64,000 nt of DNA from Rugalucina vietnamica (lineage: Eukaryota > Mollusca > Bivalvia > Lucinida > Lucinidae), in the NCBI GenBank assembly GCA_964017185.1, contig OZ024882.1:37744488-37808487 (forward strand), read 5' to 3'. This document shows positions 8,086-45,190 of this stretch, in pieces. The position numbers were made by a program, and so were the translations under genes. The stretch's first letter is position 1; every line of letters begins with the position of its first letter. The notes under the pieces were generated by a model. That model searched no databases and was not told the origin of the DNA. It saw nothing but the letters and a program-made list of their open reading frames with translations.

Positions 8086-11000
8086 CTGAACCACAATATC
8101 ATTCCCTACAACACAGCTGAGTACCATAGTTACCTTTCATTTGCAGACCACTGAGCTTGGCTGACAAACAAAACCACCATGTCATTCCCTACAACACATC
8201 TGAGTACCATAATTACCTTTCATTGGCAGACCACTGAGCTCGGCTGACAGCCTAAACCACCATGTCATTCCCTACAACACATCTGAGTACCATAATTACC
8301 TTTCATTGGCAGACCACTGAGCTAGGCTGACAGACTAAACCACCATGTAATTCCCTACAACATATCTTAGTACCATAATTGCCTTTCATTGGCAGACCAC
8401 TAAGCTCGGCTGACAGACTAAACCACCATGTCATTCCCTACAACATATCTGATTACCATAACTACCTTTCATTGGCAGACCACTGAGCTTGGCTGACAGC
8501 CTAAACCACCATGTAATTCCCTACAACATATCTGAGTACCATAATTACCTTTCATTGGCAGACCACTGAGCTTGGCTAACAGACTAAACCACCATGTAAT
8601 TCCCTACAACATATCTGAGTACCATAATTACCTTTCATTGGCAGACCACTGAGCTTGGCTGACAGCCTAAACCACCATGTAATTCCCTACAACATATCTT
8701 AGTACCATAATTGCCTTTCATTGGCAGACCACTGAGCTCGGCTGACAGACTAAACCACCATGTCATTCCCTACAACATATCTGAGTACCATAATTACCTT
8801 TCATTGGCAGACCACTGAGCTTAGCTGCAAACTGAACCACTATGTCATTCCCTACAACATATCTGAGTACCATAATTGCCTTTCATTGGCAGACCTCTGA
8901 GCTCGGCTGACAGACTACACCACCATGTAATTCCCTACAACATATCTGAGTACCACTGAGTACCACCTTTCATTGGCAGACCACTGAGCTTGGCTGACAG
9001 ACTAAACCACCATGTCATTCCCTACAACATATCTGATTACCATAATTACCTTTCATTGGCAGACCACTGAGCTCCGCTGACAGACTAAACCACCATGTCA
9101 TTCCCTACAACATATCTGAGTACCATAATTACCTTTCATTGGCAGACCGCTGAGCTTGGCTGACAGACTAAACCACCATGTCATTCCCTACAACATATCT
9201 GATTACCATAACTACCTTTCATTGGCAGACCACTGAGCTAGGCAGACAGACTAAACCACCATGTCATTCCCTACAACATATCTGATTACCATAACTACCT
9301 TTCATTGGCAGACCACTGAGCTAGGCAGACAGACTAAACCACCATGTTGTTCCCTACAACATATCTGATTACCATAACTACCTTTCATTGGCAGACCACT
9401 GAGCTAGGCAGACAGACTAAACCACCATGTTGTTCCCTACAACATATCTGAGTACCATAATTACCTTTCATTGGCAGACCACTGAGCTTGGCTGACAGAC
9501 TAAACCACCATGTCATTACCTACAACATATCTGAGTACCATAACTACCTTTCATTGGCAGACCACTGAGCTAGGCAGACAGACTAAACCACCATGTTGTT
9601 CCCTACAACATATCTGAGTACCATAATTAGCTTTCATTGGCAGACCGCTGAGCTTGGCTGACAGACTAAACCACCATGTCATTCCCTACAACATATCTCA
9701 GTACCATAATTAGCTTTCATTGGCAGACCGCTGAGCTTGGCTGACAGACTAAACCACCATGTCATTCCCTACAACATATCTCAGTACCATAATTACCTTT
9801 CATTGGCAGACCACTGAGCTAGGCAGACAGACTAAACCACCATGTCATTTCCTACAACACATCTGAGTACCATAATTACCTTTCATTGGCAGACCACTGA
9901 GCTAGGCAGACAGACTAAACCACCATGTCATTCCCTACAACATATCTCAGTACCATAATTAGCTTTCATTGGCAGACCGCTGAGCTTGGCTGACAGACTA
10001 AACCACCATGTCATTCCCTACAACATATCTCAGTACCATAATTACCTTTCATTGGCAGACCACTGAGCTAGGCAGACAGACTAAACCACCATGTCATTTC
10101 CTACAACACATCTGAGTACCATAATTACCTTTCATTGGCAGACCACTGAGCTTGGCTGACAGACTAAACCACCATGTCATTCCCTACAACACATCTGAGT
10201 ACCATAATTACCTTTCATTGGCAGACCACTGAGCTTGGCTGACAGACTAAACCACCATGTCATTTCCTGCAACATATCTGAGTACCATAATTGCCTTTCA
10301 TTGGCAGACCACTGAGCTAGGCAGACAGACTAAACCACCATGTCATTCCCTACAACATATCTCAGTACCATAATTACCTTTCATTGGCAGACCACTGAGC
10401 TTGGCTGACAGACTAAACCACCATGTCATTCCCTACAACATATCTGAGTACCATAATTACCTTTCATTGGCAGACCACTGAGCTAGGCAGACAGACTAAA
10501 CCACCATGTCATTTCCTACAACACATCTGAGTACCATAATTACCTTTCATTGGCAGACCACTGAGCTTGGCTGACAGACTAAACCACCATGTCATTCCCT
10601 ACAACATATCTGAGTACCATAATTACCTTTCATTGGCAGACCACTGAGCTTGGCTGACAGACTAAACCACCATGTCATTCCCTACAACACATCTGAGTAC
10701 CATAATTACCTGTCATTGGCAGACCACTGAGCTTGGCTGACAGACTAAACCACCATGTCATTCCCTACAACATATCTCAGTACCATAATTACCTTTCATT
10801 GGCAGACCACTGAGCTAGGCAGACAGACTAAACCACCATGTCATTTCCTACAACACATCTGAGTACCATAATTACCTTTCATTGGCAGACCACTGAGCTT
10901 GGCTGACAGACTAAACCACCATGTCATTTCCTACAACACATCTGAGTACCATAATTACCTTTCATTGGCAGACCACTGAGCTAGGCAGACAGACTAAACC

Positions 11001-14000
11001 ACCATGTCATTTCCTACAACACATCTGAGTACCATAATTACCTTTCATTGGCAGACCACTGAGCTTGGCTGACAGACTAAACCACTATGTCATTCCCTAC
11101 AACACATCTGAGTACCATAATTACCTTTCATTGGCAGACCGCTGAGCTTGGCTGACAGACTAAACCACCATGTCATTCCCTACAACATATCTCAGTACCA
11201 TAATTACCTTTCATTGGCAGACCACTGAGCTAGGCAGACAGACTAAACCACCATGTCATTTCCTACAACACATCTGAGTACCATAATTACCTTTCATTGG
11301 CAGACCACTGAGCTAGGCAGACAGACTAAACCACCATGTCATTCCCTACAACATATCTCAGTACCATAATTAGCTTTCATTGGCAGACCGCTGAGCTTGG
11401 CTGACAGACTAAACCACCATGTCATTCCCTACAACATATCTCAGTACCATAATTACCTTTCATTGGCAGACCACTGAGCTAGGCAGACAGACTAAACCAC
11501 CATGTCATTTCCTACAACACATCTGAGTACCATAATTACCTTTCATTGGCAGACCACTGAGCTTGGCTGACAGACTAAACCACCATGTCATTCCCTACAA
11601 CACATCTGAGTACCATAATTACCTTTCATTGGCAGACCACTGAGCTTGGCTGACAGACTAAACCACCATGTCATTTCCTGCAACATATCTGAGTACCATA
11701 ATTGCCTTTCATTGGCAGACCACTGAGCTAGGCAGACAGACTAAACCACCATGTCATTCCCTACAACATATCTCAGTACCATAATTACCTTTCATTGGCA
11801 GACCACTGAGCTTGGCTGACAGACTAAACCACCATGTCATTCCCTACAACATATCTGAGTACCATAATTACCTTTCATTGGCAGACCACTGAGCTAGGCA
11901 GACAGACTAAACCACCATGTCATTTCCTACAACACATCTGAGTACCATAATTACCTTTCATTGGCAGACCACTGAGCTTGGCTGACAGACTAAACCACCA
12001 TGTCATTCCCTACAACATATCTGAGTACCATAATTACCTTTCATTGGCAGACCACTGAGCTTGGCTGACAGACTAAACCACCATGTCATTCCCTACAACA
12101 CATCTGAGTACCATAATTACCTGTCATTGGCAGACCACTGAGCTTGGCTGACAGACTAAACCACCATGTCATTCCCTACAACATATCTCAGTACCATAAT
12201 TACCTTTCATTGGCAGACCACTGAGCTAGGCAGACAGACTAAACCACCATGTCATTTCCTACAACACATCTGAGTACCATAATTACCTTTCATTGGCAGA
12301 CCACTGAGCTTGGCTGACAGACTAAACCACCATGTCATTTCCTACAACACATCTGAGTACCATAATTACCTTTCATTGGCAGACCACTGAGCTAGGCAGA
12401 CAGACTAAACCACCATGTCATTTCCTACAACACATCTGAGTACCATAATTACCTTTCATTGGCAGACCACTGAGCTTGGCTGACAGACTAAACCACTATG
12501 TCATTCCCTACAACACATCTGAGTACCATAATTACCTTTCATTGGCAGACCACTGAGCTCAGCTGACAGACTAAACCACCATGTCATTCCCTACAACACA
12601 TCTGAGTACCATAATTACCTTTCATTGGCAGGCCACTGAGCTCAGCTGCAAACTGAACCACCATGTCATTCCAAACAACATATCTGATTACCATAACTAC
12701 CTTTCATTGGCAGACCACTGAGCTAGGCAGACAGACTAAACCACCATGTTGTTCCCTACAATATATCTGATTACCATAACTACCTTTCATTGGCAGACCA
12801 CTGAGCTCGGCTGACAGACTAAACCACCATGTCATTCCCTACAACATATCTCAGTACCATAACTACCTTTCATTGGCAGACCACTGAGCTCGGCTGACAG
12901 ACTAAACCACCATGTCATTCCTTACAACATATCTCAGTACCATAACTACCTTTCATTGGCAGACCACTGAGCTTGGTTGACAGACTACGTAAACCACCAT
13001 GTCATTCCATACAACATATCTCAGTACCATAACTACCTTTCATTGGCAGACCACTGAGCTCAGCTGACAGACTAAACCACCATGTCATTTCCTACAACAC
13101 ATCTGAGTACCATAATTACCTTTCACTGGCAGACCACTGAGCTTGGCTGACAGCCTAAACCACCATGTCATTCCATACAACATATCTGAGTACCATAATT
13201 ACCTGTCATTGGCAGACCACTGAGCTTGGCTGACAGACTAAACCACCATGTCATTCCCTACAACATATCTGATTACCATAACTACCTTTCATTGGCAGAC
13301 CACTGAGCTTGGCTGACAGACTATACCACCATGTCATTCCCTACAACATATCTGAGTACCATAACTACCTTTCATTGGCAGACCACTGAGCTTGGCTGAC
13401 AGACTATACCACCATGTCATTTCCTACTACATATCTGATTACCATAACTACCTTTCATTGGCAGACCACTGAGCTAGGCAGACAGACTAAACCACCATGT
13501 CATTCCCTACAACATATCTGATTACCATAACTACCTTTCATTGGCAGACCACTGAGCTTGGCTGACAGACTATACCACCATGTCATTCCCTACAACACAA
13601 ATGAGTACCATAATTACCTTTCATTGGCAGACCACTGAGCTTGGACTCCTCCTTGTGGTGGAATCATGAATTAAGTCCGTTCAGCCCGGCATGACGAAAA
13701 ACTGCCACTTTCTACTACTACTACTACCACTGAGCTTGGCTGACAGACTAAACCACCATGTCATTCCCTACAACACATCTGAGTACCATAATTAGCTTTC
13801 ATTGGCAGACCACTGAGCTTGGCTGACAGACTAAACCACCATGTCATTCCCTACAACATATCTGATTACCATAACTACCTTTCATTGGCAGACCACTGAG
13901 CTAGGCAGACAGACTAAACCACCATGTTGTTCCCTACAACATATCTGATTACCATAACTACCTTTCATTGGCAGACCACTGAGCTCGGCTGACAGACTAA

Positions 14001-15667
14001 ACCACCATGTTGTTCCCTACAACATATCTGAGTACCATAATTGCCTTTCGTTGGCAGAGCACTGAGCTTGGCTGACAGACTAAACCACCATGTCATTTCC
14101 TACAACACATCTGAGTACCATAATTACCTTTCATTGGCAGACCACTGAGCTAGGCAGACAGACTAAACCACCATGTTGTTCCCTACAACATATCTGATTA
14201 CCATAACTACCTTTCATTGGCAGACCACTGAGCTCGGCTGACAGACTAAACCACCATGTTGTTCCCTACAACATATCTGATTACCATAACTACCTTTCAT
14301 TGGCAGACCACTGAGCTAGGCAGACAGACTAAACCACCATGTTGTTCCCTACAACATATCTGATTACCATAACTACCTTTCATTGGCAGACCACTGAGCT
14401 AGGCAGACAGACTAAACCACCATGTTGTTCCCTACAACATATCTGATTACCATAACTACCTTTCATTGGCAGACCACTGAGCTAGGCAGACAGACTAAAC
14501 CACCATGTCGTTCCCTACAACATATCTGATTACCATAACTACCTTTCATTGGCAGACCACTGAGCTAGGCAGACAGACTAAACCACCATGTTGTTCCCTA
14601 CAACATATCTGATTACCATAACTACCTTTCATTGGCAGACCACTGAGCTTGGCTGACAGACTAAACCACCATGTCATTTCCTACTACATATCTGAGTACC
14701 ATAATTACCTTTCATTGGCAGACCACTGAGCTTGGCTGACAGACTAAACCACCATGTTGTTCCCTACAACATATCTGATTACCATAACTACCTTTCATTG
14801 GCAGACCACTGAGCTTGGCTGACAGACTAAACCACCATGTCATTTCCTACTACATATCTGAGTACCATAATTACCTTTCATTGGCAGACCACTGAGCTTG
14901 GCTGACAGACTAAACCACCATGTTGTTCCCTACAACACATCTGAGTACCATAATTACCTTTCGTTGGCAGAGCACTGAGCTCGGCTGACAGACTACACCA
15001 CCATGTCATTCCCTACAACATATCTGAGTACCACTGAGTACCACCTTTCATTGGCAGGCCACTGAGCTCAGCTGCAAACTGAACCACTATGTCATTCCAA
15101 ACAACATATCTGATTACCATAACTACCTTTCATTGGCAGACCACTGAGCTAGGCAGACAGACTAAACCACCATGTTGTTCCCTACAACATATCTGATTAC
15201 CATAACTACCTTTCATTGGCAGACCACTGAGCTAGGCAGACAGACTAAACCACCATGTTGTTCCCTACAACATATCTCAGTACCATAATTACCTTTCATT
15301 GGCAGACCACTGAGCTCAGCTGACAGACTAAACCACCATGTCATTCCTTACAACATATCTGATTACCATAACTACCTTTCATTGGCAGACCACTGAGCTT
15401 GGCTGACAGACTACGTAAACCACCATGTCATTTCCTACTACATATCTGAGTACCATAACTACCTTTCATTGGCAGACCACTGAGCTTGGCTGACAGACTA
15501 AACCACCATGTCATTTCCTACTACATATCTGATTACCATAACTACCTTTCATTGGCAGACCACTGAGCTTGGCTGACAGACTACGTAAACCACCATGTCA
15601 TTTCCTACTACATATCTTAGTACCATAACTACCTTTCATTGGCAGACCACTGAGCTCCGCTGACAGA
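8086..15667 (-). repeat. 83-bp tandem array built from the E10 donor junction
   Basis: About 90 copies of an 83-bp unit. Read on the gene strand each unit contains GGTTTAG, a 35-nt block matching the last 35 nt of E10 (opening TCTGTCAGC, closing CCAATGAAAG), the donor GTAATTATGG or GTAACTATGG, then about 40 nt of intron. The genuine exon end (15633-15667) is the terminal copy. Variants (AGCTTGGCTGAC versus AGCTAGGCAGAC; CATTCCC versus TTGTTCC) recur in blocks: markers at 10260/11668, 10710/12121 and 11082/12492 are spaced about 1410 bp, equal to 17 units, so a higher-order duplication is present. An 82-bp retroposed fragment interrupts it at 13645. No variable spacers, so not CRISPR-like. Confidence 0.95.
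13645..13726 (+). mobile_element. Short retroposed fragment with (CTA)n tail
   Basis: An 82-bp sequence foreign to the array opens ACTCCTCCTTGTGGTGGAAT and ends in five CTA repeats. It is bounded by exact 13-bp copies of CCACTGAGCTTGG (13632-13644 and 13727-13739). TSD plus simple-repeat tail indicate a truncated LINE- or SINE-type insertion; the family is unknown to me. Confidence 0.75.
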
Positions 15668-15815
15668 CTGGTTAGCTGTGGATTCTGTTCCAGATTGAGT
15701 TCCTTGAGAGACCAAATGTTCTTTATATCGTCAGGTATAAACTTGAGGTTATGGTACTTCAGAGTCAGTGACTTAAGAGTCTTGATCTTGAGAACTGTTG
15801 GTGGAATACCACCCG
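15633..15815 (-). CDS. Roco gene exon E10: LRR segment leading to Roc
   Basis: The 183-nt exon has acceptor TTTTCCAG and donor GTAGTTATGG, phase 1 in and out, 60 complete codons. It reads TGGIPPTVLKIKTLKSL, then repeat-like YHNLKFIPDDIKNIWSL and LKELNLEQNPQLTSL, ending SAELSGLPMK. These are LRRs preceding the GTPase. Its last 35 nt (15633-15667) and donor are the terminal unit of the 83-bp array that occupies the next intron, so about 90 near copies of this donor lie downstream in the transcript. Confidence 0.9.
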
Positions 15816-18033: not shown

Positions 18034-18169
18034 TTTCAGTGAATTCCAATGAGCCAGCACCAAATCTCTGGTATTTCTTACACAGCACATCATTGAGTTG
18101 TACGACTTCATCAGCTGTCAAAGTGCTGGACTCATCAACATCAACTGTCTTGAACAGTTCTTGTCTCTC
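18034..18169 (-). CDS. Roco gene exon E9: EF-hand-like loop
   Basis: The 136-nt exon has acceptor GTATTTCAG and donor GTAAGTTC, phase 0 in and phase 1 out, 45 codons. It encodes ERQELFKTV, then the 12-residue loop DVDESSTLTADE, then VVQLNDVLCKKY. Loop positions 1, 3, 5 and 12 are D, D, S and E with a hydrophobic residue at 8, as in a calcium-binding EF-hand, although position 6 is S rather than the usual G. The flanks look like E and F helices. The acceptor and first ~30 nt are the template of the 55-bp array that fills the intron upstream. E9 joins E10 directly in phase. A single EF-hand between LRR segments and Roc is unusual. Confidence 0.88.
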
Positions 18170-18427
18170 CTGAAATACATAACCCATATACAGGAGTTAC
18201 AGTCTTACACAATGCTTGTCTATGTTGAAATACACACCACATAAACATGAGTTACAGTCTTAAACAGTTACTGTCTCTCCTGAAATACATACCCCATATA
18301 CATGAGTTACAGTCTTAAACAGTTCTTGTCCCTCCTGAAATACATACCCCAATAACAGGAGTTACAGTCATAAACAGTTCTTGTCCCTCCTGAAATGCAT
18401 ACCCCAATAACAGGAGTTACATTTGTA
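18170..18427 (-). repeat. 55-bp acceptor array, block a (next to E9)
   Basis: About four to five copies of the 55-bp unit directly adjoin the E9 acceptor. Each contains a T-rich stretch ending TTTCAG followed by a GAGGGACAAGAACTGT-like copy of the start of E9. The first copies are the most diverged. The array is cut here by a TIR element (18433-19635). Confidence 0.9.
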
Positions 18428-18432: not shown

Positions 18433-19635
18433 CAGGACCGGATCCAGACTTTAGTGTCCTGGTAATATCACAGCAGGTGACTAACAGTGACTAAGATAAC
18501 AGTAGGAATCATGACCAAAAGACTGGTTATTGACATCTGGCAGTAATAGCTGTGCCAATGATACACATTTTTTCTTAATTTTGTGCAAAAAATGGCTTAA
18601 GGATGTTCGCTGCCAATGAAAAAGTATTCAAACTTTTTTTTCTAATTCCAAATTACAACACAAGACATTTGAAAACAAAATAAGTATAGGGTAGTGTGCA
18701 TTTTTTTCGAGCTACAGGCCTGTGAATGAGACCTCTGAACACTATGCTTTAAATTTAGTAAAATTAATTTAATTTTCAATCCTTTGGAACATACCTGTCT
18801 TGAACAAAAATACACATAGAATGCTTTCAAAAGTCATAATATTTACGTAATGCAGACTATTGTGAACCAAAAGCAATGAAAAATTTGGAACTTGAAGTGA
18901 ATGACAAATTTCTACGTGTCGTTTACCAACCCTACCCCCATACTTGAAAAGTCGGAAAAAAATCAATATTTTGAAATGTGCCAAACCCATATTTGTGGAT
19001 TCAAAATTTTTCTTGTATTTTCACACAAGATAGGTTTGAATAAAAGAAAGAAATATATAGGGTAGTGTGCATATATGAGAGTACCAACAACTTGAAAATT
19101 GCCATTTTAAGCCTTTTTTCGTCTGTTTTGTTTCTTAAAGCCCATTTCATAAAACCACCCAAAATTTTAAAACTAGCACACCAAAGACAGAAAGACCGAC
19201 TTAGAAGACCATATACACATATACTGCTGCTAAAACAAACATCGAACTAATGCAATTTAATTGAAGATGCATGATATATAAGTTTAATCTACCCTACCCC
19301 CTAAATTTTACAGACAACTAAAATTTTCTGAAAAGTTGCAGAAAATGGGGTGAAAAAATGAAGTTCCTTAGAATGACAATTTTCATGGCTCATTCAATGC
19401 ATATTAACACTATGTATCCAAATATAAAATATTAGGAAAATATCTGCAACCGTTTTCGAGATATTCAACAAAAGAAAAACCGGAAGTTCCGAAATGTCAA
19501 ATGTTAGCAGCGAACATCCTTAATAAAATATTTTTTGCATGGTGTCTGGGGGGGGTGGGTGGGGTGGGGGTGGGGGGGGGGGGCATGAGCCCCAATGCCC
19601 CCGGCCCCCCCCCCCCCCCTCTAGATCCGGGCCTG
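18433..19635. mobile_element. TIR element (hAT-like ends) with nested TTAA element
   Basis: Ends are CAGGACCGGATCCAGA and the reverse complement of CAGGCCCGGATCTAGA, 16-bp TIRs with two mismatches. Both flanks carry CAGTC, from the disrupted array unit; an 8-bp hAT duplication is not fully preserved. Only about 280 bp is its own sequence, including adjoining G-rich and C-rich tracts (19545-19620). The remainder is element A. No transposase. Confidence 0.65.
18601..19519 (+). mobile_element. Element A: TTAA-site TIR element, 919 bp
   Basis: TIRs GGATGTTCGCTGC / GCAGCGAACATCC (approximately) are flanked by TTAA at 18597-18600 and 19520-19523. TTAA duplication is typical of piggyBac and Kolobok elements. 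No reading frame encodes a recognisable transposase. Element B (20963-25819) is the same family in opposite orientation, so A also shows how B looked before the nested insertion. Confidence 0.85.
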
Positions 19636-19640
19636 CAGTC

Positions 19641-19793
19641 TTAAACATTTCTTGTCCCTCTTGAAATACATACCCCAATAACAGGAGTTACAGTCTTAAA
19701 CAGTTCTTGTCCCTCCTGAAAATATACTCCAATAACAGGAGTTACAGTCTTAAACAGTTCATGTCCCTCCTGAAAAACATACCTAAACTAGAA
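19641..19793 (-). repeat. 55-bp acceptor array, block b
   Basis: About three 55-bp units survive between two insertions, showing the array was continuous before the mobile elements arrived. The right border is the start of element E. Confidence 0.9.
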
Positions 19794-25819: not shown

Positions 25820-25823
25820 TTAA

Positions 25824-28800
25824 ACAGTTCTTGTCCCTCCTGAAATACATACCCGAAATTGTGCAATACTATCTCCCTTTGAATGTTTTTGCTGCTTCCA
25901 AAGGATCAAACCTTAATATTTTATTAAACAGTTCTTGTCCCTCCTGAAAAACATACCCCAATAACAGGCGTTACAGTCTTAAACAGTTCTTGTCCCTCCT
26001 GAAAAACATACCCCAATAACAGGCGTTACAGTCTTAAACAGTTCTTGTCCCTCCTGAAAAACATATCCCAATAACAGGAGTTACAGTCTTAAACAGTTCA
26101 TGTCCCTCCTGAAAAACATACCCCAATAACAGGAGTAACAGTCAAACAGTTCTTGTCTCTCCTGAAAAACATACCCCAATAACAGGCGTTACAGTCTTAA
26201 ACAGTTCTTGTCCCTCCTGAAAAACAATCCCCAATAACAGGAGTAACAGTCTTAATCAGTTCTTGTCCCTCCTGAAATACATACCACAATAACAGGAGTT
26301 ACAGTCTTAAACATTTATTGTCCCTCCTGAAATACATACCACAATAACAGGAGTTACAGTCTTAAACAGTTCTTGTCTCTACTGAAAAACATATCCCAAT
26401 AACAGGAGTTACAGTCTTAAACAGTTCATGTCCCTCCTGAAAAACATACCCAAATAACAGGAGTAACAGTCTTAAACAGTTCTTGTCCCTCCTGAAATAC
26501 ATACCCCAATAACAGGAGTTACAGTGTTAAACAGTTCTTGTCCCCCCTGAAAAACATACCCCAATAACAGGAGTTACAGTCTTAAACAGTTCTTGTCCCT
26601 CCTGAAATACATACCACAATAACAGGAGTAACAGTCAAACAGTTCTTGTCTCTCCTGAAAAACATATCCCAATAACAGGAGTTACAGTCTTAAACAGTTC
26701 ATGTCCCTCCTGAAAAACATACCCAAATAACAGGAGTAACAGTCTTAAACAGTTCTTGTCCCTCCTGAAATACATACCCCAATAACAGGAGTTACAGTGT
26801 TAAACAGTTCTTGTCCCCCCTGAAAAACATACCCCAATAACAGGAGTTACAGTCTTAAACAGTTCTTGTCCCTCCTGAAATACATACCCCAATAACAGGA
26901 GTTACAGTCTTAAACAGTTCTTGTCCCTCCTGAAAAACATTCCCCAATAACAGGAGTTACAGTCTTAAACAGTTCTGGTCACTCCTGAAAAAACATACCC
27001 CAATAACAGGAGTTACAGTCTTAAACAGTTCTTGTCCCTCCTGAAATACATACCACAATAACAGGAGTTACAGTCTTAAACATTTATTGTCCCTCCTGAA
27101 ATACATACCCAATAACAGAGTTACAGTCTTAAACAGTTCTTGTCTCTACTGAAAAACATACTCCAATAACAGAAGTTACAGTCTTAATCAGTTCTTGTCC
27201 CTCCTGAAATACATACCCCAATAACAGAAGTTACAGTCTTAAACAGTTCTTGTCCCTCCTGAAATACATACCCCAATAACAGGAGTTACAGTGTTAAACA
27301 GTTCTTGTCCCCCCTGAAAAACATACCCCAATAACAGGAGTTACAGTCTTAAACAGTTCTTGTCCCTCCTGAAATACATACCCCAATAACAGGAGTTACA
27401 GTCTTAAACAGTTCTTGTCCCTCCTGAAATACATACCCCAATAACAGGAGTTACAGTCTTAAACAGTTCTTGTCCCTCCTGAAAAACATTCCCCAATAAC
27501 AGGAGTTACAGTCTTAAACAGTTCTGGTCTCTCCTGAAAAAACATACCCCAATAACAGGAGTTACAGTCTTAAACAGTTCTTGTCCCTCCTGAAATACAT
27601 ACCACAATAACAGGAGTTACAGTCTTAAACAGTTCATGTCCCTCCTGAAAAACATACCCCAATAACAGGAGTAACAGTCAAACAGTTCTTGTCTCTCCTG
27701 AAAAACATATCCCAATAGCAGGAGTTACAGTCTTAAACAGGTCATGTCCCTCCTGAAAAACATACCCAAATAACAGGAGTAACAGTCTTAAACAGTTCTT
27801 GTCCCTCCTGAAATACATACCCCAATAACAGGAGTTAGTGTTAAACAGTTCTTGTCCCCCCTGAAAAACATACCCCAATAACAGGAGTTACAGTCTTAAA
27901 CAGTTCTTGTCCCTCCTGAAATACATACCCCAATAACAGGAGTTACAGTCTTAAACAGTTCTTGTCCCTCCTGAAAAACATTCCCCAATAACAGGAGTTA
28001 CAGTCTTAAACAGTTCTGGTCACTCCTGAAAAAACATACCCCAATAACAGGAGTTACAGTCTTAAACAGTTCTTGTCCCTCCTGAAATACATACCACAAT
28101 AACAGGAGTTACAGTCTTAAACATTTATTGTCCCTCCTGAAATACATACCCAATAACAGAGTTACAGTCTTAAACAGTTCTTGTCTCTACTGAAAAACAT
28201 ACTCTAATAACAGAAGTTACAGTCTTAATCAGTTCTTGTCCCTCCTGAAATACATACCCCAATAACAGGAGTTACAGTCTTAAACAGTTCTTGTCCCTCC
28301 TGAAAAACATACCCCAATAACAGGAGTAACAGTCTTAATCAGTTCTTGTCCCTCCTGAAAAACATACCCCAACAACAGGAGTTACAGTCTTATACAGTTC
28401 TTGTCCCTCCTGAAAAACATACCCCAATAGCAGGACTTACAGTCTTAAACAGTTCTTTTCCCTCCTGAAAAACATACCCCAATAACAGGAGTTACAGTCT
28501 TAAACAGTTCATGTCCCTCCTGAAAAACATACCCAAATAACAGGAGTAACAGTCTTAAACAGTTCTTGTCCCTCCTGAAATACATACCCCAATAACAGGA
28601 GTTACAGTGTTAAACAGTTCTTGTCCCCCCTGAAATACATACCCCAATAACAGAAGTTACAGTCTTAAACAGTTCTTGTCCCTCCTGAAAAACAATCCCC
28701 AATAACAGGAGTAACAGTCTTAATCAGTTCTTGTCCCTCCTGAAATACATACCACAATAACAGGAGTTACAGTCTTAAACAGTTCTTGTCTCTACTGAAA

Positions 28801-29755
28801 AACATACTCTAATAACAGAGTTACAGTCTTAAACAGTTCTTGTCTCTACTGAAAAACATACTCCAATAACAGAAGTTACAGTCTTAAACAGTTCTGGTCA
28901 CTCCTGAAAAACAATCCCCAATAACAGGAGTTACAGTCTTAAACAGTTCTTGTCCCTCCTGAAAAACATACCCCAATAACAGGAGTAACAGTCTTAATCA
29001 GTTCTTGTCCCTCCTGAAAAACATACCCCAACAACAGGAGTTACAGTCTTATACAGTTCTTGTCCCTCCTGAAAAACATACCCCAATAGCAGGACTTACA
29101 GTCTTAAACAGTTCTTTTCCCTCCTGAAAAACATACCCCAATAACAGGAGTTACAGTCTTAAACAGTTCATGTCCCTCCTGAAAAACATACCCAAATAAC
29201 AGGAGTAACAGTCTTAAACAGTTCTTGTCCCTCCTGAAATACATACCCCAATAACAGGAGTTACAGTGTTAAACAGTTCTTGTCCCCCCTGAAAAACATA
29301 CCCCAATAACAGGAGTTACAGTCTTAAACAGTTCTTGTCCCTCCTGAAATACATACCCCAATAACAGGAGTTACAGTCTTAAACAGTTCTTGTCCCTCCT
29401 GAAAAACATTCCCCAATAACAGGAGTTACAGTCTTAAACAGTTCTGGTCACTCCTGAAAAAACATACCCCAATAACAGGAGTTACAGTCTTAAACAGTTC
29501 TTGTCCCTCCTGAAATACATACCACAATAACAGGAGTTACAGTCTTAAACATTTATTGTCCCTCCTGAAATACATACCCAATAACAGAGTTACAGTCTTA
29601 AACAGTTCTTGTCTCTACTGAAAAACATACTCCAATAACAGAAGTTACAGTCTTAAACAGTTCTGGTCACTCCTGAAAAACAATCCCCAATAACAGTAGT
29701 AACAGTCTTAAACAGTTCTTGTCACCCCTGAAAACATACCCTATATACAGGAGTT
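25824..29755 (-). repeat. 55-bp tandem array (block c) built from the E9 acceptor
   Basis: About 70 copies. On the gene strand each typical unit is GTATGTATTTCAG or GTATGTTTTTCAG followed by a 42-nt block matching the start of E9 (GAGGGACAAGAACTGTTTAA) and ending in TTATTGGG. The block is free of stops in the E9 frame and encodes EGQELFKTVTPVIG. Variant units (TGGTCACTCC, ATTTATTGTCC, AGTGTTAAAC) recur, and a block near 28300-28560 recurs about 659 bp later, showing higher-order amplification. Upstream of the true exon, every unit supplies a decoy acceptor. Homology to E9 ends before the EF loop. Confidence 0.95.
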
Positions 29756-29833
29756 ACTGTAATTATTTAAATTTTATATGTGGTCCATGCGATACATTAA
29801 ACATTTTAAACAAATTGGCAGGCTTTCTTTTCC

Positions 29834-30100: not shown

Positions 30101-30814
30101 CTTGTCACTAAGTCTCCTTAGTATAGTGCTGCTATTCAGTGTTTGGTTGAAGGCTCTGTATGACAGGAATGTCTTGGTAGTAGTGAGCTGGTCAAACCAA
30201 GGGACACCACTGAGATCCAAGGTTGTCAAAGGGAGATCAGCCAGCTCAGCAGGAACAGATCTTATCTCATTTCTCCCCAGTGACAGTACCGTTAGTTGTG
30301 TCAAGTTCTTGATGTCAGAGAAGGAGTTTATCTCTCCAATGTTCTCAGCATAGAGTTCCTCTAGCTTAGTCAGTTTGAACACAACCTGTGGTAAACCTGA
30401 CAGTGGGTTGTCAGAGATGTTGAGGTACGTCAGTGAGTCCGCTAGAACATCAAAGTTAGCCGGCAGGTCCAATATATTGTTCATGGCTATATCCAGGTAG
30501 GACAAACTCTTCAGTTTCTCCAGACCATTAGGTAGGGTCACCAGCTGATTATTAGATACAGAAAGTGTCTCCAAGTTGATGAATTTTTCAAAGAAGTCTG
30601 CTGGCAAACGTTCAATAAAATTGTTCTGGAAATCCAACCGCTGGATAAATGGATAGAATTGCTCAAACTTCTCCATGGGGACAGCATTTAGTTCATTGCC
30701 TGCCATGGATGACAGGACGTGACCTGTACAGCGTACATAGGTCTCTGTTGTCTGGAAGAGGAGGCGTGGCTTACTGTCCTGCATCACGTCCTTGAATATG
30801 TCCATCATGTCTCG
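30101..30814 (-). CDS. Roco gene exon E8: leucine-rich repeats
   Basis: This is the largest exon, 714 nt and 238 residues, with acceptor TTTTCAG and donor GTAAAC, phase 0 both sides. After about 55 residues of linker it has roughly seven LRRs of 21-24 residues with the LxxLxxxxNxL spacing, for example LETLSVSNNQLVTLP, LSYLDIAMNNILDLP, LTYLNISDNPLSGLP and LTVLSLGRNEIRSVP. LRRs next to Roc domains are typical of Roco proteins and serve protein interaction or dimer regulation. The last residues (RRLSDK) form the start of the helix that E9 continues into the EF-hand-like loop. An ATG near the 5' end is not a start, since a good acceptor precedes it. Confidence 0.92.
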
Positions 30815-34835: not shown

Positions 34836-36272
34836 CCAGAAGGATGCTGGAGCATGGCCATCCTATTAGCTCATCTTGTGAGCCTTTGGCTAAGGTGAGC
34901 TACATGTAAAAGTATGCCCAAAAACCATTTTGAATAGTCCTTTTGCATGTGCAAGGGAGATAATCTAATCACCTTAAAATTGAAAATCAAATCTATGGAG
35001 TAATTTTACGAGTTTGGCTCACAGCTACCGGTATGCATACTACAATTTTGGTTTGGTTTATTTTAACTAAAAAATAATCCATTTAGATTTTTTCCAAGAA
35101 AATAGTTACTTCTCTTGCAGACAGTTTTACAATGTAAAAAGCACTAATCAAAGTTATTTTCTGGCATAAAATTTGTTGACCAATTTTCAAAATTCATGTA
35201 GCATCTGTTAAGACTGTTGGAATGCAAAATGGTGATATGATCATATTTTTATTGAGGTGTTTCAGACAAGTGAGATCTTGAACTAGAAATAAGTGTTTGT
35301 AAAACACTATGCCCCCAACTGTATGCTTGCCACTAACCTGGCACAGTTTTTTCATTATTTTTGAAAATCATGTAAGCAAACAGACTTGACCTGGGCACAA
35401 ATAGCAAACTTGAGGACTAACAGTGATAACAGATGCACACTTAAATCCGAAAGTGGTAAAATTGATAATTTTTTAAAATTCCGTAATTTTGTCAAAATTT
35501 GACAAAAAGTTCTCAAAAGTTAATCAAGTGATCTACTCCTTGGCCCCAATCAGCATACCAAATATGAAAGCACTAGCTCAAATACTTTTTGAGATATCTT
35601 GCACACAAGATTTTCAAGATTTTTTTTCAAAGGGAGATAATTCAGAAAGGAGGCATAATTCAGAAAGAAAAAAAATATGGGTCATCTTTTTTTGTCATGC
35701 GGAATCCATATATGAAATTTCAAGACACTAGCATCCACTGTTTAAAAGTTTCAAATTTCATCCAAAAGTGGTAAAATTGATAAATTTTCAAATTTCCGTA
35801 ATTTTGTCAAAATTTGACAAAAAGTTCTCAACAGTTAATCAGGTGATCTACTCCTTGGCCCCAATCAGCATACCAAATATGAAAGCACTAGCTCAATTAC
35901 TTTTTGAGATATCTTGCACACAAGATTTTCAAGATTTTTTTTTTCAAACGGAGACAATTCAGAAAGGGGGCATAACTCAGAAAAGAAAAAAAATACGGAT
36001 CATCTTTTTTTTCATGAGGAATCCATATATGAAATTTCAAGACACTAGCATCCACTGTTTAAAAGTTTCAAATTTCATCCGAAAGTGGTAAAATTGATAA
36101 ATTTTCAAAATTCCATAATTTTGTCAAAATTTGACAAAAAGTTCTCAAAAGTTAATCAGGTGATCTACTCCTTGGCCCCAATCAGCATACCAAATATGAA
36201 AGCACTAGCTCAAATACTTTTTGAAATATCTTGCACACAAGATTTTCAAGATTTTTTTTCAAAGGGAGATAA

Positions 36273-37500
36273 TGTTAATGTTTATGTTATAAGGGAAACT
36301 ACTCATTAAGAACTTTAACTTAATACAATTACTTCCCTTTTGCTTATTGTGATGTCACAACGTCATGATGATGACGTTACGTCTAATTATTTTATGTCTT
36401 TTATGTCTGCCATAGTGAATATTAAATATGTAACTCTCAGAGTATTTAGTATCGTTCAAGCTTATACTGCGTTTACACTATGTTCCCAGCAGCCCCGGCA
36501 GCCCCGTTTGCTAGAAACGTAGCGTGCCGTGGAGTTTTGTTAATATATTTCTCTGATTTTCAAGATCTATTACGTTTTGTTACGTTTTCTTACGTTCTAT
36601 TACGATATCCGTAACACGCCGTGGTAGTGATAAGCCGGTGTGTCATGAAGGCGCTAAGGTACGTTACGGTTATCCACGATCTATCACGATTAGTAGCACG
36701 TTCTATTACGGCCTGTTACGTTCTGTTGTGGTCAGTTGCGTTTTGACCAAGGCGTAACACGTTTCTTTGGTCTGTCAAGGTCAGCTACGGACCATTCAAT
36801 ATAAAGCACATTTTTGCCTTTTGTATACGAATAAGTCCTTTGAAATAATAACAATCGCGCTCCACAACAACCGACTGCAGAGTTGATTAAGAAATTCTTC
36901 TTCAATTGCATAGTGCAGCGTATGGTCTGTATTGTTCACTATAGTGACTGCTCCAGTATGAAGGAACTTGTCCCCATGATATGCCATTTTATATCTATAA
37001 ACTTCACGCGCCGTGATAACCGTAACAGAACGTGACATACGTAGTAGAGCGGGTTGAACACCGTCAAAGACCGTAACGCACCGTAACTTAACGCAACAAA
37101 ACGTGTTGAGTATTCCGTAGGAAACGGGACGAGACGTGAGACGACCGTGATCAAACGCAACAGAACGTGGAAGATCCGTAGCTTGCCGGGCTATTCACTA
37201 GCTTCCCGTTGCACTACGGACCGCCTCCACGTTTCGCTACGTACTGTTACGTTCTGTCACAGTGTGTTACGTTCAGCCCGTTTTATCACGGCCCATTACG
37301 TTTCTCATTTCCACCGTGACTGCCGTGGCAGATTTTTAAACTGTCAAAAAATTTGTCACGGTGTCCACGGTTATCCCGGCGTGCTACGTTTGCCTATCCC
37401 GTTCCCCTGCGTTGCCTCACGGTTATCCCGTTTTGCTCACGGTTGTCTGAAACGTGGCCGCCGTGACCGCCGGGATCATAGTGTAAATGCAGTATTAACA
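36273..37500 (+). repeat. 5' LTR, interrupted by a TIR element
   Basis: 36273-36464 matches the 3' LTR and stops at CTTA; the final ACA is found at 37498-37500 after the inserted element and its TTA duplicate. The LTR has CRE-like strings (ATGATGACGTTACGTC) that could be promoter sites; this is inferred. The insertion probably disables 5' LTR function. Confidence 0.88.
36465..37494. mobile_element. 1030-bp TIR element, TTA duplication, rich in TTACG/CGTAA motifs
   Basis: Ends TACTGCGTTTACACTATG and TACTGCATTTACACTATG (right end reversed) are flanked by TTA, as in PIF/Harbinger elements. The interior is full of short motifs such as CTATTACG, TTACGTT, CGTAACG and CCGTGG in both orientations and is far richer in CpG than its surroundings. 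The 143-codon frame at 37147-37578 crosses these motifs and the element end and is not a credible gene. No transposase. Confidence 0.85.
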
Positions 37501-37646: not shown

Positions 37647-38987
37647 ATGACAATTACAATAAAACCTCCAGTTAACAACAACAAAAAGAATTATGAGCGG
37701 TATAAACAAGAACTTTTAGCGTGGAAAGAAATAACTGATTTAGATGCAAGGAAACAAGCAATTGCTGTAGCACTATCCCTTCCAGAAGAGGACGACACCC
37801 AGATAAGTATTTGACCAGTTGCCACTAGAGGACTTGAAGAAAGAAAATGGATTTAGAGTGTTGGTAACATTTCTTGATGAACACTTGGGAAAGGATGATC
37901 TCAGTGACAGTATTGAAAAGTTTTATGACTTCGAAAATTATGAAAGGGTTGACGGGCAAACAATTTATAATTTATAGCTAACTATGATATGAAATACAGA
38001 AAAATAGAGAAGAAAAATATGAAATTACCATCCGAAATTTTGGCCTTCAAATTAATTCAGAAATCAAAAATTAATCACAAGGAAAAACTTTTAGTTCTCA
38101 CTGGATTAAACTATGAAAACAAAGCAAGATTGTATGAGGAAGCTAAATTGTCACTTAAGAAATTTGTAGGAGAAAACATATCAACAGAAAAACAAAGCAA
38201 ATCATTGGAGTCCAGTAAAGTGGAGAAAAGTGAGGATGTTCAGGCACTGGTTTCAACATGTAACTTAAGGGAGAAAAATAAGCAAGTTCAGAAGACAACA
38301 GGGGTGCTCTATAACAAAGGAGGTGTAAGACGTATTTGTGGAGGTTCACATAGAAAGAGTGACACAAACGTGACTTTGATCAGGAGAAGAAATCCACTAG
38401 GCATAAATGGTCGACCTATCAGGTGTTATTCTTGTGGGTCTTTTAGGCATCTATTAGCGGATTGTCCAGACAGCTGGGAAAATATGAAGAAAGTGAAGTA
38501 CTGTAAAAAGGAGGTTTGGCCAATGGGCTACTTCGAGGAAACTAAAAGGGTGAATACCAACAACTCTGCACTTTATGATACTGGAGGTTATAAGAGCATG
38601 AATGAAAATTGTGGCAAAAGGAGAAACAAAGCATGTGCTGATGTATACACAGGTTCTAAATATGCGATTGGGTTTTCCAGCAACAAAGTGTCACATGATA
38701 ATTTTGCGAAACCTGTAGAATCTGAACTGAATTTAACATTTCAAGTTAAATATGGGAGAGGGGCGTTTAATTCAAAGATAAAATCAACGAGTAAACTGGA
38801 CTACAGAGGTGCAAAGAGGGTGGAGACAGAAGTTGGGTCGAGGATTCAGCAGGTTGAGAACCCAAGGTGGTGTGGCCAGGCCAGGAATTTGGGTTATAGT
38901 ATGGACATGTATGGTGAATGCTGGAAGTTACCAAATGGTTGCAACAGTCACAGATGTTTTGGAGATGCACTGAATGTTAGGAAATGA
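37647..38987 (+). pseudogene. Degenerate gag of LTR retrotransposon
   Basis: Retrotransposon Gag forms the particle that packages element RNA. A first frame opens with ATG at 37647 and stops at 37812; a second is open to about 37976; a third runs to 38987 (332 codons from the first Met at 37989). The pieces read as one capsid-like protein broken by two frame changes. The last frame holds a CCHC zinc knuckle, CYSCGSFRHLLADC (C-x2-C-x4-H-x4-C), near 38420, followed by a basic tail. No pol follows. The breaks are left as seen. Confidence 0.8.
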
Positions 38988-39569: not shown

Positions 39570-39764
39570 TGTTAATGTTTATGTTATAAGGGAAACTACT
39601 CATTAAGAACTTTAACTTAATACAATTACTTCCCTTTTGCTTATTGTGATGTCACAACGTCATGATGATGACATTACGTCTAATTACTTTATGTCTTTTA
39701 TGTCTGCCATAGTGAATATTAAATATGTAACTCTCAGAGTATTTAGTATTGTTCAAGCTTAACA
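39570..39764 (+). repeat. 3' LTR, 195 bp, intact
   Basis: Complete LTR TGTTAATG...TTAACA, followed by the GATAA duplication and resumed 316-bp unit. It differs from the 5' LTR at about three bases. Confidence 0.92.
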
Positions 39765-40631
39765 GATAATTCAGAAAGGGGGCATAACTCAGAAAAGAAA
39801 AAAATACGGGTCATCTTTTTTTTTCATGAGGAATCCATATATGAAATTTCAAGACACTAGCATCCACTGTTTAAAAGTTTCAAATTTCATCCAAAAGTGG
39901 TAAAATTGATAAATTTTCAAATTTCCGTAATTTTGTCAAAATTTGACAAAAAGTTCTCAAAAGTTAATCAGGTGATCTACTCCTTGGCCCCAATCAGCAT
40001 ACCAAATATGAAAGCACTAGCTCAAATACTTTTTGAGATATCTTGCACACAAGATTTTCAAGATTTTTTTTCAAAGGGAGATAATTCAGAAAGGGGGCAT
40101 AACTCAGAAAAGAAAAAAAAATACGGGTCATCTTTTTTTTCATGAAGAATTCATATATGAAATTTCAAGACACTAGCATCCACTGTTTAAAAGTTTCAAA
40201 TTTCATCCGAAAGTGGTAAAATTGATAAATTTTCAAAATTCCGTAATTTTGTCAAAGTTTGACAAAAAGTTCTCAAAAGTTAATCAGGTGATCTACTCCT
40301 TGGCCCCAATCACCATACCAAATATGAAAGCACTAGCTCAAATACTTTTTGAGATATCTTGCACACAAGATTTTCAAGATTTTTTTTCAAAGGGAGATAA
40401 TTCAGAAAGGGGGCATAACTCAGAAAAGAAAAAAAGTACGGGTCATCTTTTTTTTCATGAGGAATCCATATATGAAATTTCAAGAATCTAGCATCCACTG
40501 TTTAAAAGTGCGGACACACGGACACACAGACACACGGACAAGCCCAAAGCAATATGCCCTACCAACTTTTTCAAAGTTGGGGGCATAAAAATGCAGTTTC
40601 TGGAAGATGGTATATAGACAGTATAGCTTAC

Positions 40632-40696: not shown

Positions 40697-40789
40697 CTAG
40701 GATGTTACTATGGCTGAAATAATTCATGCAGATAGAAAGACTGCTCTGCTCTATTCTACATTCATATATTAATAAGTAGCCCTAGGCAA

Positions 40790-41776: not shown

Positions 41777-41810
<34 letters not shown>

Positions 41811-42637: not shown

Positions 42638-43067
42638 CTGCAAGATCAATTGTTGGCTTGTTTTGGGGTTAAATGTCCTTGTCAACAATCTTTCAGTCAT
42701 AATGGGACAAAGCTGCCACTCTAGAGGGTATTAATAAGTAGTTAATGCATCTCACATGGACACAACCCGGCTCATTTGGGTTACTCACAAGGCCATCACA
42801 CTCAAAACACTATGAGAAGAGAAAATTTAGTGTATGGCCTGCAGTACTTCAATTGAGATTGTAGTTATTCAGCTGTTAGGTGCTACTAATAGTAGTTATT
42901 AAGCAAAAATTTTAAAAATACATTGCCTATGGTTGTATCACCAGGTAGAGAATTAGTTTGTAACATATATGTGTGAAGCTTCCATGCAATTAAGTGTGAA
43001 TGGTTGAATCTTTACTGTAAATATATCAAATTTTGTAGAAATATTCAGTGTATCCATGAACACTTAC
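42638..43067. other. Intron between E6 and E5, nothing recognised
   Basis: Unique-looking AT-rich sequence without exons or repeats that I can name. Confidence 0.4.
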
Positions 43068-43130
43068 CACAGAATGGCTCAGTTTGACACCTGGACACAG
43101 GGCCACACACAGGTCTGGGGTAAGGTTATC
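43068..43130 (-). CDS. Roco gene exon E5, at the edge of the 85-bp array
   Basis: The 63-nt exon has acceptor TATGTTACAG and donor GTAAGTG, phase 0 on both sides, encoding DNLTPDLCVALCPGVKL plus four residues. The acceptor and first roughly 50 nt are repeated about 15 times immediately upstream in the gene sense as 85-bp units. I chose this copy as the genuine exon because only it continues past AAACTG into SHSV and a consensus donor; the array copies run into TGTACTGATTG instead. Upstream copies therefore offer decoy acceptors. The peptide is not recognised. Confidence 0.75.
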
Positions 43131-44172
43131 CTGTAACATAAATATCAGTAAAACAATCAGTACACAGTTTGACACCTGGACACAGGGCCACACACAGGTC
43201 TGGGGTAAAGTTATCCTGTAACATAAATATCAGTACAACAATCAGTACACAGTTTGACACTTGGACACAGGGCCACACACAGGTCTGGGGTAAGGTTATC
43301 CTGTAACGTAAATATCAGTACAACAATCAGTACACAGTTTGACACCTGGACACAGGGCCACACACAGGTCTGGGGTAAGGTTATCCTGTAACATAAATAT
43401 CAGTATAACAATCAGTACACAGTTTGACACTTGGACACAGGGCCACACACAGGTCTGGGGTAAGGTTATCCTGTAACATAAATATCAGTACAACAATCAG
43501 TACACAGTTTGACACCAGGGCACAGGGCCACACACAGGTCTGGGGTAAGGTTATCCTGTAACAAATATCAGTACAACAATCAGTACACAGTTTGACACTT
43601 GGACACAGGGCCACACACAGGTCTGGGGTTAGGTTATCCTGTAACACAAATATCAGTACATCAATCAGTACACAGTTTGACACCTGGACACAAGGCCACA
43701 CACAGGTATGGGATAAGGTTATCCTGTAACATAAATACCAGTTCAACAATCAGTACACAGTTTGACACCTGAACACAAGGCCTCACTCAGGTCTGGTGTA
43801 AGGTTATCCTGTAACATAAATACCAGTTCAACAATCAGTACACAGTTTGACACCTGAACACAAGGCCACACTCAGGTCTGGGGTAAGGTTATCCTGTAAC
43901 ATAAATATCAATACAACAATCAGTACACAGTTTGACACCTGGACACAGGGCCACACACAGGTCTGGGGTAAGGTTATCCTGTAACATAAATATCAGTACA
44001 AAAACCAGTACACAGTTTGACACTTGGACACAGGGCCACACACAGGTCTGGGGTAAGGTTATCCTGTAACACAATATCAGTACAACAATCAGTACACAGT
44101 TTGACACTTGGACACAGGGCCACACACAGGTCTGGGGTAAGGTTATCCTGTAACACAATAACCAGTACAATA
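43083..44172 (-). repeat. 85-bp tandem array built from the E5 acceptor (block a)
   Basis: About thirteen 85-bp units. On the gene strand each has TTATGTTACAG, then a ~50-nt copy of the start of E5 (GATAACCTTACCCCAGACCT onward to GTCAAACTG), then TGTACTGATTG spacer. The first unit is E5 itself. Minus-strand frames containing NLTPDLCVALCPSVKL merely translate these copies. The repeated block is not a multiple of three and lacks the E5 donor. Confidence 0.95.
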
Positions 44173-44962
44173 AGAGCTGTCGCAGGACAGCGTAGCTTGC
44201 CTGACTTATGCTTTGCCACTAAATCTATCAAAGTCTATGACTCATGACCTTGACCTCAAGGTCTCTCAGGTTCGCCAAGATGGTACAGCTTTAAACCATT
44301 ACATGTATATACCAACATGATCCATCAACATATTCAAAAGATATAGACTTTAAAAACCTTAACCCAAAAAAATTTTAATATAAAATTTCTAAGTCTGTGA
44401 CCTTGACCTCAAGGTCACTCAGGTGGGTATGGTACAGCATAAAACTTCAGTCCAATATCTATCAATAAGCGAAGTATCAGCATCTATATATTCAAGAGAT
44501 ACAAACTTACAAAAACATTAACACAAAATTTATAAGTCCATGACCTTGACCTCATGGTCACTCAGGTGGGTCGTTATGGTACAGCATAAAACTTCAGCCA
44601 ATATCTATCAATATGCAAAGTATCAACTTGATCCATCTATATATTCAAGAGAATTAGACTTACAAAAACTTTAACCAAAAACTTTAACACAAAATTTCTG
44701 AGTCCCTGACCTTGACCTCAAAGTCACTCAGGTAGTCCATGATGGTACAGTATAAAACTTCTGACCAATATCTACCAACATGCAAAGTATCAACTTAATC
44801 CATCAATATGTTCAAGAGATATAGCCTTATAAAAACTTAAACCAAAAACTTTAACATTTTGAGCAACGCCGACGCTAACGCTAACGCCGACACTAACGCC
44901 TACGCCAACGCCGGGGTGACTGCAATAGCTCTTCCTGTACTTTCGTACAGGCGAGCTAAAAA
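44173..44962 (+). mobile_element. Pearl-like element G, ~790 bp, inside the 85-bp array
   Basis: The 5' end has palindrome GCTGTCGCAGGACAGC and then TAGCTTGCCTG; the 3' end has hairpin CCTGTACTTTCGTACAGG then CGAGCTAA. TAGCTTGCCTG and CAGGCGAGCTA form the subterminal inverted repeat. The core has about four ~165-bp units with CCTTGACCTCAAGGTC. A (CTAACGCCGA)-type microsatellite precedes the 3' end. Same architecture as families I and II but different sequence. Confidence 0.75.
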
Positions 44963-45190
44963 CCAGTACACAGTTTAATATTTGGACACAGGGCCACACA
45001 CAGGTCTGGGGTAAGGTTATCCTGTAACATAAATATCAGTACAACAATCAGTCAACAGTTTGACACTTGGACACAGGGCCACACACAGGTCTGGGGTTAG
45101 GTTATCCTGTAACATAAATATCAGTACAACAATAAGTACACAGTTTGACACCTGGACACAGGGCCACTCACAGGTTATCCTGAAACACAA
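44963..45190 (-). repeat. 85-bp array (block b)
   Basis: About two and a half further units of the E5-derived array beyond element G. It is ended by insertion of a family I pearl-like element at 45191. Confidence 0.92.

What the first reader, a model, noticed from the sequence alone, without database searches (positions are those of the whole stretch)
8086..45190. Three tandem arrays in one gene are each amplified from a different exon-intron junction
Seen directly: the 83-bp array repeats the end of E10 plus its donor; the 55-bp array repeats the acceptor plus start of E9; the 85-bp array repeats the acceptor plus most of E5. In each case the genuine exon is the terminal unit. Ordinary intronic minisatellites do not systematically start inside exons; three independent cases in a 57-kb gene suggest a mechanism, either selection on splicing (decoy sites that tune exon use) or a local amplification process anchored at exon edges. 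The pre-mRNA would carry about 90 extra E10-type donors, about 75 E9-type acceptors and about 15 E5-type acceptors.
Basis: partly seen in the sequence, partly recalled or inferred. Interest (0 to 1): 0.87.

Follow-up and report, generated by a model that had tools for sequence, protein, structure and literature searches.

The report
Splice-site tandem arrays ("mirages") in clam gene
In one bivalve gene, pieces that straddle exon edges have been copied side by side up to about 90 times, filling introns with look-alike splice sites; such repeats are known from lancelets as "mirages", and these are unusually large.

Summary
The arrays are real. In a minus-strand bivalve LRR-Roc gene, 3 of 22 tested exon edges are tandemly amplified: the E10 donor edge (83 bp, 90 units), the E9 acceptor edge (55 bp, 79 units, split by insertions) and the E5 acceptor edge (85 bp, 15 units); 19 edges are single-copy. 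A scallop homologue confirms E9 and E10. E5 rests on phase and splice signals only. Most copies keep usable-looking splice signals, and using them would bring a stop codon. An E5-array stretch recurs on a second public contig.

A genuine exon at the array's end follows from geometry and points to no mechanism. Splice dinucleotides are not demonstrably better kept than the rest (11 of 89 donors lost). Breakpoints lie 23-51 nt inside exons. Best account: short duplications across exon edges, probably at 3-5 shared letters, grown by array turnover and tolerated by splicing.

The kind is known: amphioxus "mirages" (Adh, globin, troponin C, PGBD5). New here, within my searches, are the mollusc host, the copy number and two to three in one gene. 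Use of decoys, and frequency genome-wide, could not be tested.

The parts
8085..15669 (-). 83-bp array: last 37 nt of E10 + donor + 46 nt of intron 10; 90 anchored units, genuine E10 end is the first (5') unit
15633..15815 (-). Exon E10 (LRR; 183 nt), donor AAG|GTAGTT
25840..29760 (-). 55-bp array, main block (71 anchored units): 32 nt intron 8 + acceptor + first 23 nt of E9
19636..19783 (-). 55-bp array, second block (3 units), separated by other DNA
18147..18421 (-). 55-bp array, exon-side block (5 units; the last is the genuine E9 start)
18034..18169 (-). Exon E9 (136 nt), acceptor TATTTCAG|GAG
43080..44170 (-). 85-bp array, main block (13 units incl. the predicted E5): 34 nt intron 4 + acceptor + 51 of 63 nt of E5
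44965..45190 (-). 85-bp array, distal block (2 anchored units plus a degenerate one), split off by an insertion
43068..43130 (-). Predicted exon E5 (63 nt, phase 0), acceptor TTACAG|GAT, donor GTG|GTAAGT; no homology support
30101..30814 (-). Exon E8 (LRR; 714 nt), donor AAG|GTAAAC; edges single-copy
7380..7545 (-). Exon E11 (leads into the Roc GTPase domain); edges single-copy
44172..44963 (-). Insertion inside the 85-bp array, carrying 166-bp tandem repeats
18597..19523 (.). Element with inverted TTAA ends between two blocks of the 55-bp array

Best explanation
These are independent 'mirages': minisatellites founded by a short tandem duplication that happened to straddle an exon-intron boundary. 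Shown: unit content, copy numbers, geometry and long exact multi-unit copies. Inferred: each founding duplication came from template slippage or microhomology repair (shared CAGT-type letters at the E10 breakpoints, ACAGT at the E9 breakpoints). The arrays then grew and homogenised by unequal exchange or slippage inside introns, where length is nearly neutral; selection keeps only the end unit attached to the full exon. The copied splice signals are tolerated because a decoy has no proper partner: possible pseudo-exons inside one unit are about 27-42 nt, too short for efficient exon definition (recalled knowledge), while the genuine edge belongs to a full exon. Transcripts that do use a decoy carry a premature stop and would probably be degraded.
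For: 3 of 22 exon edges multi-copy, 19 single, all copies in their own arrays. E9 and E10 confirmed by a scallop homologue. Unit exon parts match the genuine exons. Shared letters at the founding breakpoints of E10 and E9. Exact 1,427-bp match at offset 1,411 = 17 x 83 in the E10 array and exact 520-bp match in the E9 array: block turnover. Decoy use gives a stop: 78 of 78 usable E10 donors, 77 of 77 E9 acceptors, 13 of 14 E5 acceptors before the exon, the 14th just inside it. P0155, on a second contig of 1,392,753 bp, reads an E5-array stretch and its adjoining insertion with 79 of 80 residues equal. Same architecture in amphioxus, reported not to disturb splicing.
Against: Uniform placement makes several edge-spanning arrays in one gene unlikely, hinting at an extra cause. 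The exon part of the unit is slightly less variable than the intron part in all three arrays (Mann-Whitney P = 0.017, 0.29, 0.009), though a rotation test is not significant (0.14, 0.31, 0.32). Second codon positions are the least variable in two of three arrays, a weak hint of coding constraint. E5 lacks homology support and its founding junction is hidden by inserted DNA. No transcript and no relative's DNA was available. The exact 1.4-kb copy could be an assembly error.
Confidence: 0.8

Rival explanations
1. The arrays are selected decoys: intronic copies of donor and acceptor recruit U1 or U2AF, slow or detain introns 4, 8 and 10, or shunt transcripts to nonsense-mediated decay, tuning expression of an immune-type LRR-Roc gene.
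For: Decoys score at or above the genuine site in 76 of 89, 69 of 78 and 10 of 14 cases (weight matrices recalled, not species-trained). Use of a usable decoy yields a premature stop. AG is kept in 76 of 78 and 14 of 14 acceptor copies. Decoy exons that cause intron retention are known in human OGT (passages).
Against: GT is lost in 11 of 89 donors, and 78% of two-site windows in that unit vary no more; for the acceptors 20% and 33% of windows vary as little. Copies of a site are expected to score like it without selection. Amphioxus mirages reportedly do not alter splicing.
Confidence: 0.08
2. A mutational process targets exon edges in this genome, for example at R-loops or transcription-associated breaks, so mirages are common genome-wide. 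This could act together with the best explanation.
For: 2-3 edge-spanning arrays in one gene; P = 5e-5 to 0.004 under uniform placement (and arithmetic from it). Several amphioxus genes also carry them.
Against: Estimate is post hoc. Breakpoints are not at the edge itself but 23-51 nt into the exon. Exon-near intron may simply be the DNA that survives longest in introns full of inserted elements.
Confidence: 0.2
3. The 55-bp units act as alternative in-frame 42-nt micro-exons, bounded by CAG|GAG and a GTATGT donor, adding 14 residues between E8 and E9.
For: Of 77 usable decoy acceptors, 60 have GTATGT within 60 nt, 52 of them at 42 nt, and 44 are in frame and open.
Against: A 14-codon open frame is likely by chance. 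The first letters of the donor region are among the more variable columns. The unit next to E9 has lost its AG and the genuine upstream unit lacks the donor. Introns between neighbouring units would be 13 nt, so at most one or few could be used.
Confidence: 0.04
4. Assembly artefact: read errors or misjoins created or inflated the arrays.
For: Long exact internal copies (1,427 bp) can be misassembled.
Against: Units differ (55 distinct of 89, 42 of 78, 14 of 14). An E5-array stretch recurs on a second public contig with one residue changed. Other DNA is inserted inside the arrays.
Confidence: 0.03

Closest known systems
Amphioxus 'mirages' (minisatellite-like tandem repeats spanning exon-intron boundaries: Adh3, globins BflGb6 and BflGb9, troponin C, PGBD5); PMC3087553 and PMC3902484, passages read
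   Same: Tandem units of tens to about 160 bp containing the end of an exon, the splice site and adjoining intron; both donor and acceptor edges occur; many copies keep AG/GT.
   Different: Bivalve host; 90, 79 and 15 units against 6 and 3 in the two BflGb6 haplotypes; two to three in one gene; arrays broken by inserted DNA. Effect on splicing not tested here.
Human IFI6 (6-16) minisatellite with repeated splice donors (Turri et al. 1995, seen only as cited in passages of PMC4526556; paper not held)
   Same: A minisatellite at an exon edge offers many donors.
   Different: There, two downstream repeats are used as donors and give isoforms; unit recalled as 12 bp. Here use would give a stop codon.
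Intron gain by tandem genomic duplication of AGGT segments (PMC3443670, passages read)
   Same: Tandem duplication multiplies splice signals.
   Different: There an exonic piece is duplicated and a new intron arises; here an existing edge is multiplied within an intron and no new intron is shown.
Decoy exons and detained introns (human OGT; PMC12061472, passages read)
   Same: Intronic splice sites that are not productively used.
   Different: The OGT decoy exon is regulated; here there are many repeat copies with no demonstrated preferential conservation.
Mollusc intronic minisatellite in abalone TSSK1-like, intron 3, 27-bp unit (PMC6905558, passages read)
   Same: Length-variable minisatellite in a mollusc intron.
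   Different: The passages seen do not say that it spans an exon edge.

Membership tests
Mirage (exon-intron-boundary minisatellite) | Tandem repeat unit spans a genuine exon-intron boundary | tested here: met
   E10 and E9 edges with 90 and 79 spanning copies; E5 edge with 15, exon predicted only
Mirage (exon-intron-boundary minisatellite) | Both donor and acceptor edges can be affected | tested here: met
   E10 donor; E9 acceptor (and predicted E5 acceptor)
Mirage (exon-intron-boundary minisatellite) | Many but not all units keep AG/GT | tested here: met
   78 of 89; 76 of 78; 14 of 14
Mirage (exon-intron-boundary minisatellite) | Inner units homogenised, end units excluded | tested here: inconclusive
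   Distal end unit 0.916 vs median 0.964 (83 bp) and 0.891 vs 0.945 (55 bp); the decoy next to the exon 0.88 and 0.764; genuine units are lower partly by construction. In the 85-bp array the ends are 0.965 and 0.988 vs median 0.965, so not met there
Mirage (exon-intron-boundary minisatellite) | Copy-number instability between haplotypes | tested here: inconclusive
   Exact multi-unit copies inside arrays; second contig known only from one 81-aa reading
Mirage (exon-intron-boundary minisatellite) | Does not disturb regular splicing | not testable with these tools
   No transcript data
IFI6-type minisatellite of usable splice donors | Repeat copies are used as splice sites in mRNA | not testable with these tools
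   Only the predicted consequence was tested: 78 of 78 usable donors give a stop
Selected splicing decoy | Splice motifs conserved above the rest of the unit | tested here: not met
   Clearly not for the 83-bp donor GT (0.78 of windows as little variable); for the acceptors AG is well kept but not beyond chance windows (0.20, 0.33)
Ordinary dispersed satellite or element | Unit occurs at unrelated places | tested here: not met
   In the window all 15, 79 and 90 matches lie within the arrays' own ranges on one strand; the rest of the genome could not be searched

The most novel reading that the evidence does not exclude
The arrays form a copy-number-tunable splicing brake: about 170 intronic decoy donors and acceptors in three introns of one immune-type gene detain introns or feed nonsense-mediated decay, so that array length, which changes quickly, sets the gene's output and varies between individuals.
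Probability: 0.07. Interest if true: 0.8.

Novelty: new member of a known kind. Interest (0 to 1): 0.45.

Why it matters
It carries a phenomenon described in lancelets to a mollusc, at larger copy number than the published case I could read. It gives a natural experiment in splice-site choice: dozens of near-identical sites, many scoring at or above the genuine one, next to one used exon. It is also a hard case for gene predictors and assemblers, and a scan for mirages across long-read bivalve genomes would test the proposed mirage route to new introns.

Tried and rejected
Considered and rejected: units as coding repeats (longest open stretches inside the arrays are 50, 69 and 122 codons, none runs through; third codon positions are not more variable than first; second positions are lowest in two of three arrays, so a weak hint remains); 'exon always terminal' as evidence of mechanism (forced by geometry); a gradient of similarity away from the exon (flat along the 83-bp array, 0.91-0.94, and without a fall along the 55-bp array, 0.86-0.90); inserted elements as the source of the arrays (they interrupt or neighbour them).

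Led nowhere: PDB search by E8 gave generic LRR proteins (60 of 319 shown) and by the Roc exon LRRK2-type Roc; E1-E2 and E6-E7 were not found with the scallop protein (the attempt failed on a wrong program option); E5 has no homology support. Literature searches returned nothing and 44 two unrelated papers; IFI6 came, the mirage precedent from the listing and the passages. Earthworm metallothionein and abalone TSSK1-like passages describe intronic minisatellites but not, in what I saw, exon-edge arrays. That mirages are unreported in molluscs rests only, open-licence PMC; one search matched 321 papers, 20 listed, and one listed nudibranch paper containing the word mirage (PMC7664011) was not opened.

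The splice matrices are recalled, human-like and not species-trained. In one search, 76 of 284 random 60-mers outside the arrays had 3 or more copies in the window because repeats are common there; being multi-copy is not special, being locally tandem at an exon edge is.
Full report
What the gene is. The window holds, on the minus strand, a large part of a gene whose exons align in order with a 2,076-residue scallop protein (P0048, Ylistrum balloti, listed as an uncharacterized protein with precomputed LRR, Roc, COR and TIR-type Pfam accessions). Matched stretches run from 49,098 down to 677. Pfam finds LRRs in E8 and E10 and Roc in the exons near 6.9 and 5.2 kb. Splice phases fit across E3|E4|E5, E8|E9 and E9|E10|E11. 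The exons expected between E5 and E8, and the first two, were not located.

The three arrays. The E10 array lies downstream of E10 in intron 10: 90 anchored units over 7.6 kb, each with the last 37 nt of E10, the donor and 46 nt of intron. The E9 array lies upstream of E9 in intron 8: 79 anchored units in three blocks (71, 3, 5), each with 32 nt of intron, the acceptor and the first 23 nt of E9. The E5 array lies upstream of predicted E5 in intron 4: 15 anchored units in two blocks (2, 13), each with 34 nt of intron, the acceptor and 51 of the 63 nt of E5. All 22 edges of the 11 located exons were compared with the whole window as 60-mers: 3 are multi-copy (90, 79, 15) and 19 occur once. All copies lie in the arrays' own ranges, on one strand.

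How sure the exons are. E9 and E10 match P0048 (42% identity each) and join in frame. E5 has no tblastn hit, and its alignment to the expected stretch of P0048 is reached by 28% of shuffles. It remains a likely exon because it is open, in phase 0 after E4, and bounded by an acceptor and a good donor.

Chance. If founding segments of these lengths were dropped uniformly on 683-49,112 (20 inner edges, at least 15 nt on each side), three or more edge-spanning ones among the five arrays of at least five copies has P = 5e-5, and among eight families P = 0.002. Counting only the two homology-backed edges, the same per-array values give about 0.004. The window was chosen for this feature, so these values overstate the surprise.

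How they arose. At E10 the exon breakpoint reads ...CCAGTCTG and the intron end of the array ...TTCAGTTC; the unit junction reads ...TTTAGTCTG. At E9 the exon reads ...GACAGTTG, the intron start ...TTACAGTAA, and the unit junction ...GACTGTAAC. Both are what slippage or repair at three to five shared letters would leave, with one later substitution; this is inference. The E5 founding junction is masked by inserted DNA. Later growth was by blocks: an exact 1,427-bp match at offset 1,411 bp (17 x 83) in the E10 array, an exact 520-bp match at offset 2,469 bp in the E9 array. Units are about equally alike at any separation (0.91-0.93 in the 83-bp array). The distal end units and the decoys next to the exon are more diverged than the median in the 83- and 55-bp arrays, not in the 85-bp array.

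Why the exon is at the end. Duplicating a segment that straddles an exon edge leaves the rest of the exon attached to one end copy and the rest of the intron to the other. The genuine exon is therefore always terminal, at the 5' end for a donor edge and the 3' end for an acceptor edge. This is geometry, not evidence of selection.

Are the decoys selected? With recalled human-like matrices, 76 of 89 donor copies, 69 of 78 E9 acceptor copies and 10 of 14 E5 acceptor copies score at or above the genuine site. That is expected of copies of a site. The telling test is whether splice letters are kept better than the rest. In the 83-bp array the GT is lost in 11 of 89 units and 78% of two-letter windows vary no more than it does; in the two acceptor arrays the AG is well kept, but 20% and 33% of windows do as well. 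The exon part is a little less variable than the intron part in all three (Mann-Whitney 0.017, 0.29, 0.009), but not significantly under rotation of the unit (0.14, 0.31, 0.32). By codon position (first, second, third) the mean changes are 3.5, 1.0, 3.4 (83 bp), 5.5, 2.8, 2.6 (55 bp) and 0.7, 0.2, 0.4 (85 bp). I read this as no good evidence for selection on decoys, with a weak trend left open.

What use of a decoy would do. All 78 usable E10 donors and all 77 usable E9 acceptors bring an in-frame stop before the next exon part; of 14 E5 acceptors, 13 do so before E5 and the nearest just inside it. Stray use would thus probably be removed by decay, which limits harm. A separate possibility, that 55-bp units serve as 42-nt in-frame micro-exons (44 of 77 open), is probably coincidence.

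Independent support. An open reading in the E5 array found one protein, P0155 (81 aa, public ENA source, contig of 1,392,753 bp), which matches the window's own reading in 79 of 80 residues, across both the array and the inserted DNA next to it. I infer another haplotype or assembly of the same species. Relatives of E8 at 67-87% identity exist on other contigs (P0002-P0007), but their DNA could not be fetched, so presence of the arrays in other species is untested.

What is known. Minisatellite-like repeats spanning exon-intron boundaries are described in amphioxus as 'mirages': Adh3, globins BflGb6 and BflGb9 (6 and 3 units in two BflGb6 haplotypes, 150-160 bp), with both edges affected, many units keeping AG/GT, length instability, and RT-PCR suggesting normal splicing (passages of PMC3087553); also troponin C and PGBD5 (passages of PMC3902484). 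A human case in which repeat donors are used is IFI6 (passages of PMC4526556; original not held). The present arrays meet the main sequence features of mirages and are filed as new members of that kind, remarkable for phylum, number and concentration in one gene.

Noticed in passing
18597-19523 and 25807-25823: Element with inverted ends TTAAGGATGTTCGCTGC...GCAGCGAACATCCTTAA, a piggyBac-like TTAA target by recall; one end of a second copy sits at a TTAA of a 55-bp unit.
   Followed up: partly
37971-38987 (+): 338-aa open frame with a zinc-knuckle-like motif (CYSCGSFRHLLADC, motif by recall), looks like a retroelement gag remnant inside the gene's intron region.
   Followed up: no
35445-36273 and 39764-40509; 53628-54717 and 56153-57522: Tandem families of about 316 bp and of 465 bp each occur at two places (TRF); the matching ORF readings suggest the 316-bp pair is one dispersed element, unlike the exon-edge arrays.
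   Followed up: no
12551-11140 (83-bp array): Exact 1,427-bp repeat at offset 1,411 bp: a very recent 17-unit duplication, or an assembly duplication.
   Followed up: partly
25924-29757: 55-bp units contain a donor-like GTATGT 42 nt after the acceptor, giving in-frame open 42-nt pseudo-exons for 44 of 77 usable acceptors.
   Followed up: partly
44172-44963: Insertion inside the E5 array with a possible 9-10-bp target duplication (TGTACTGGTT, by eye) and internal 166-bp tandem repeats.
   Followed up: partly
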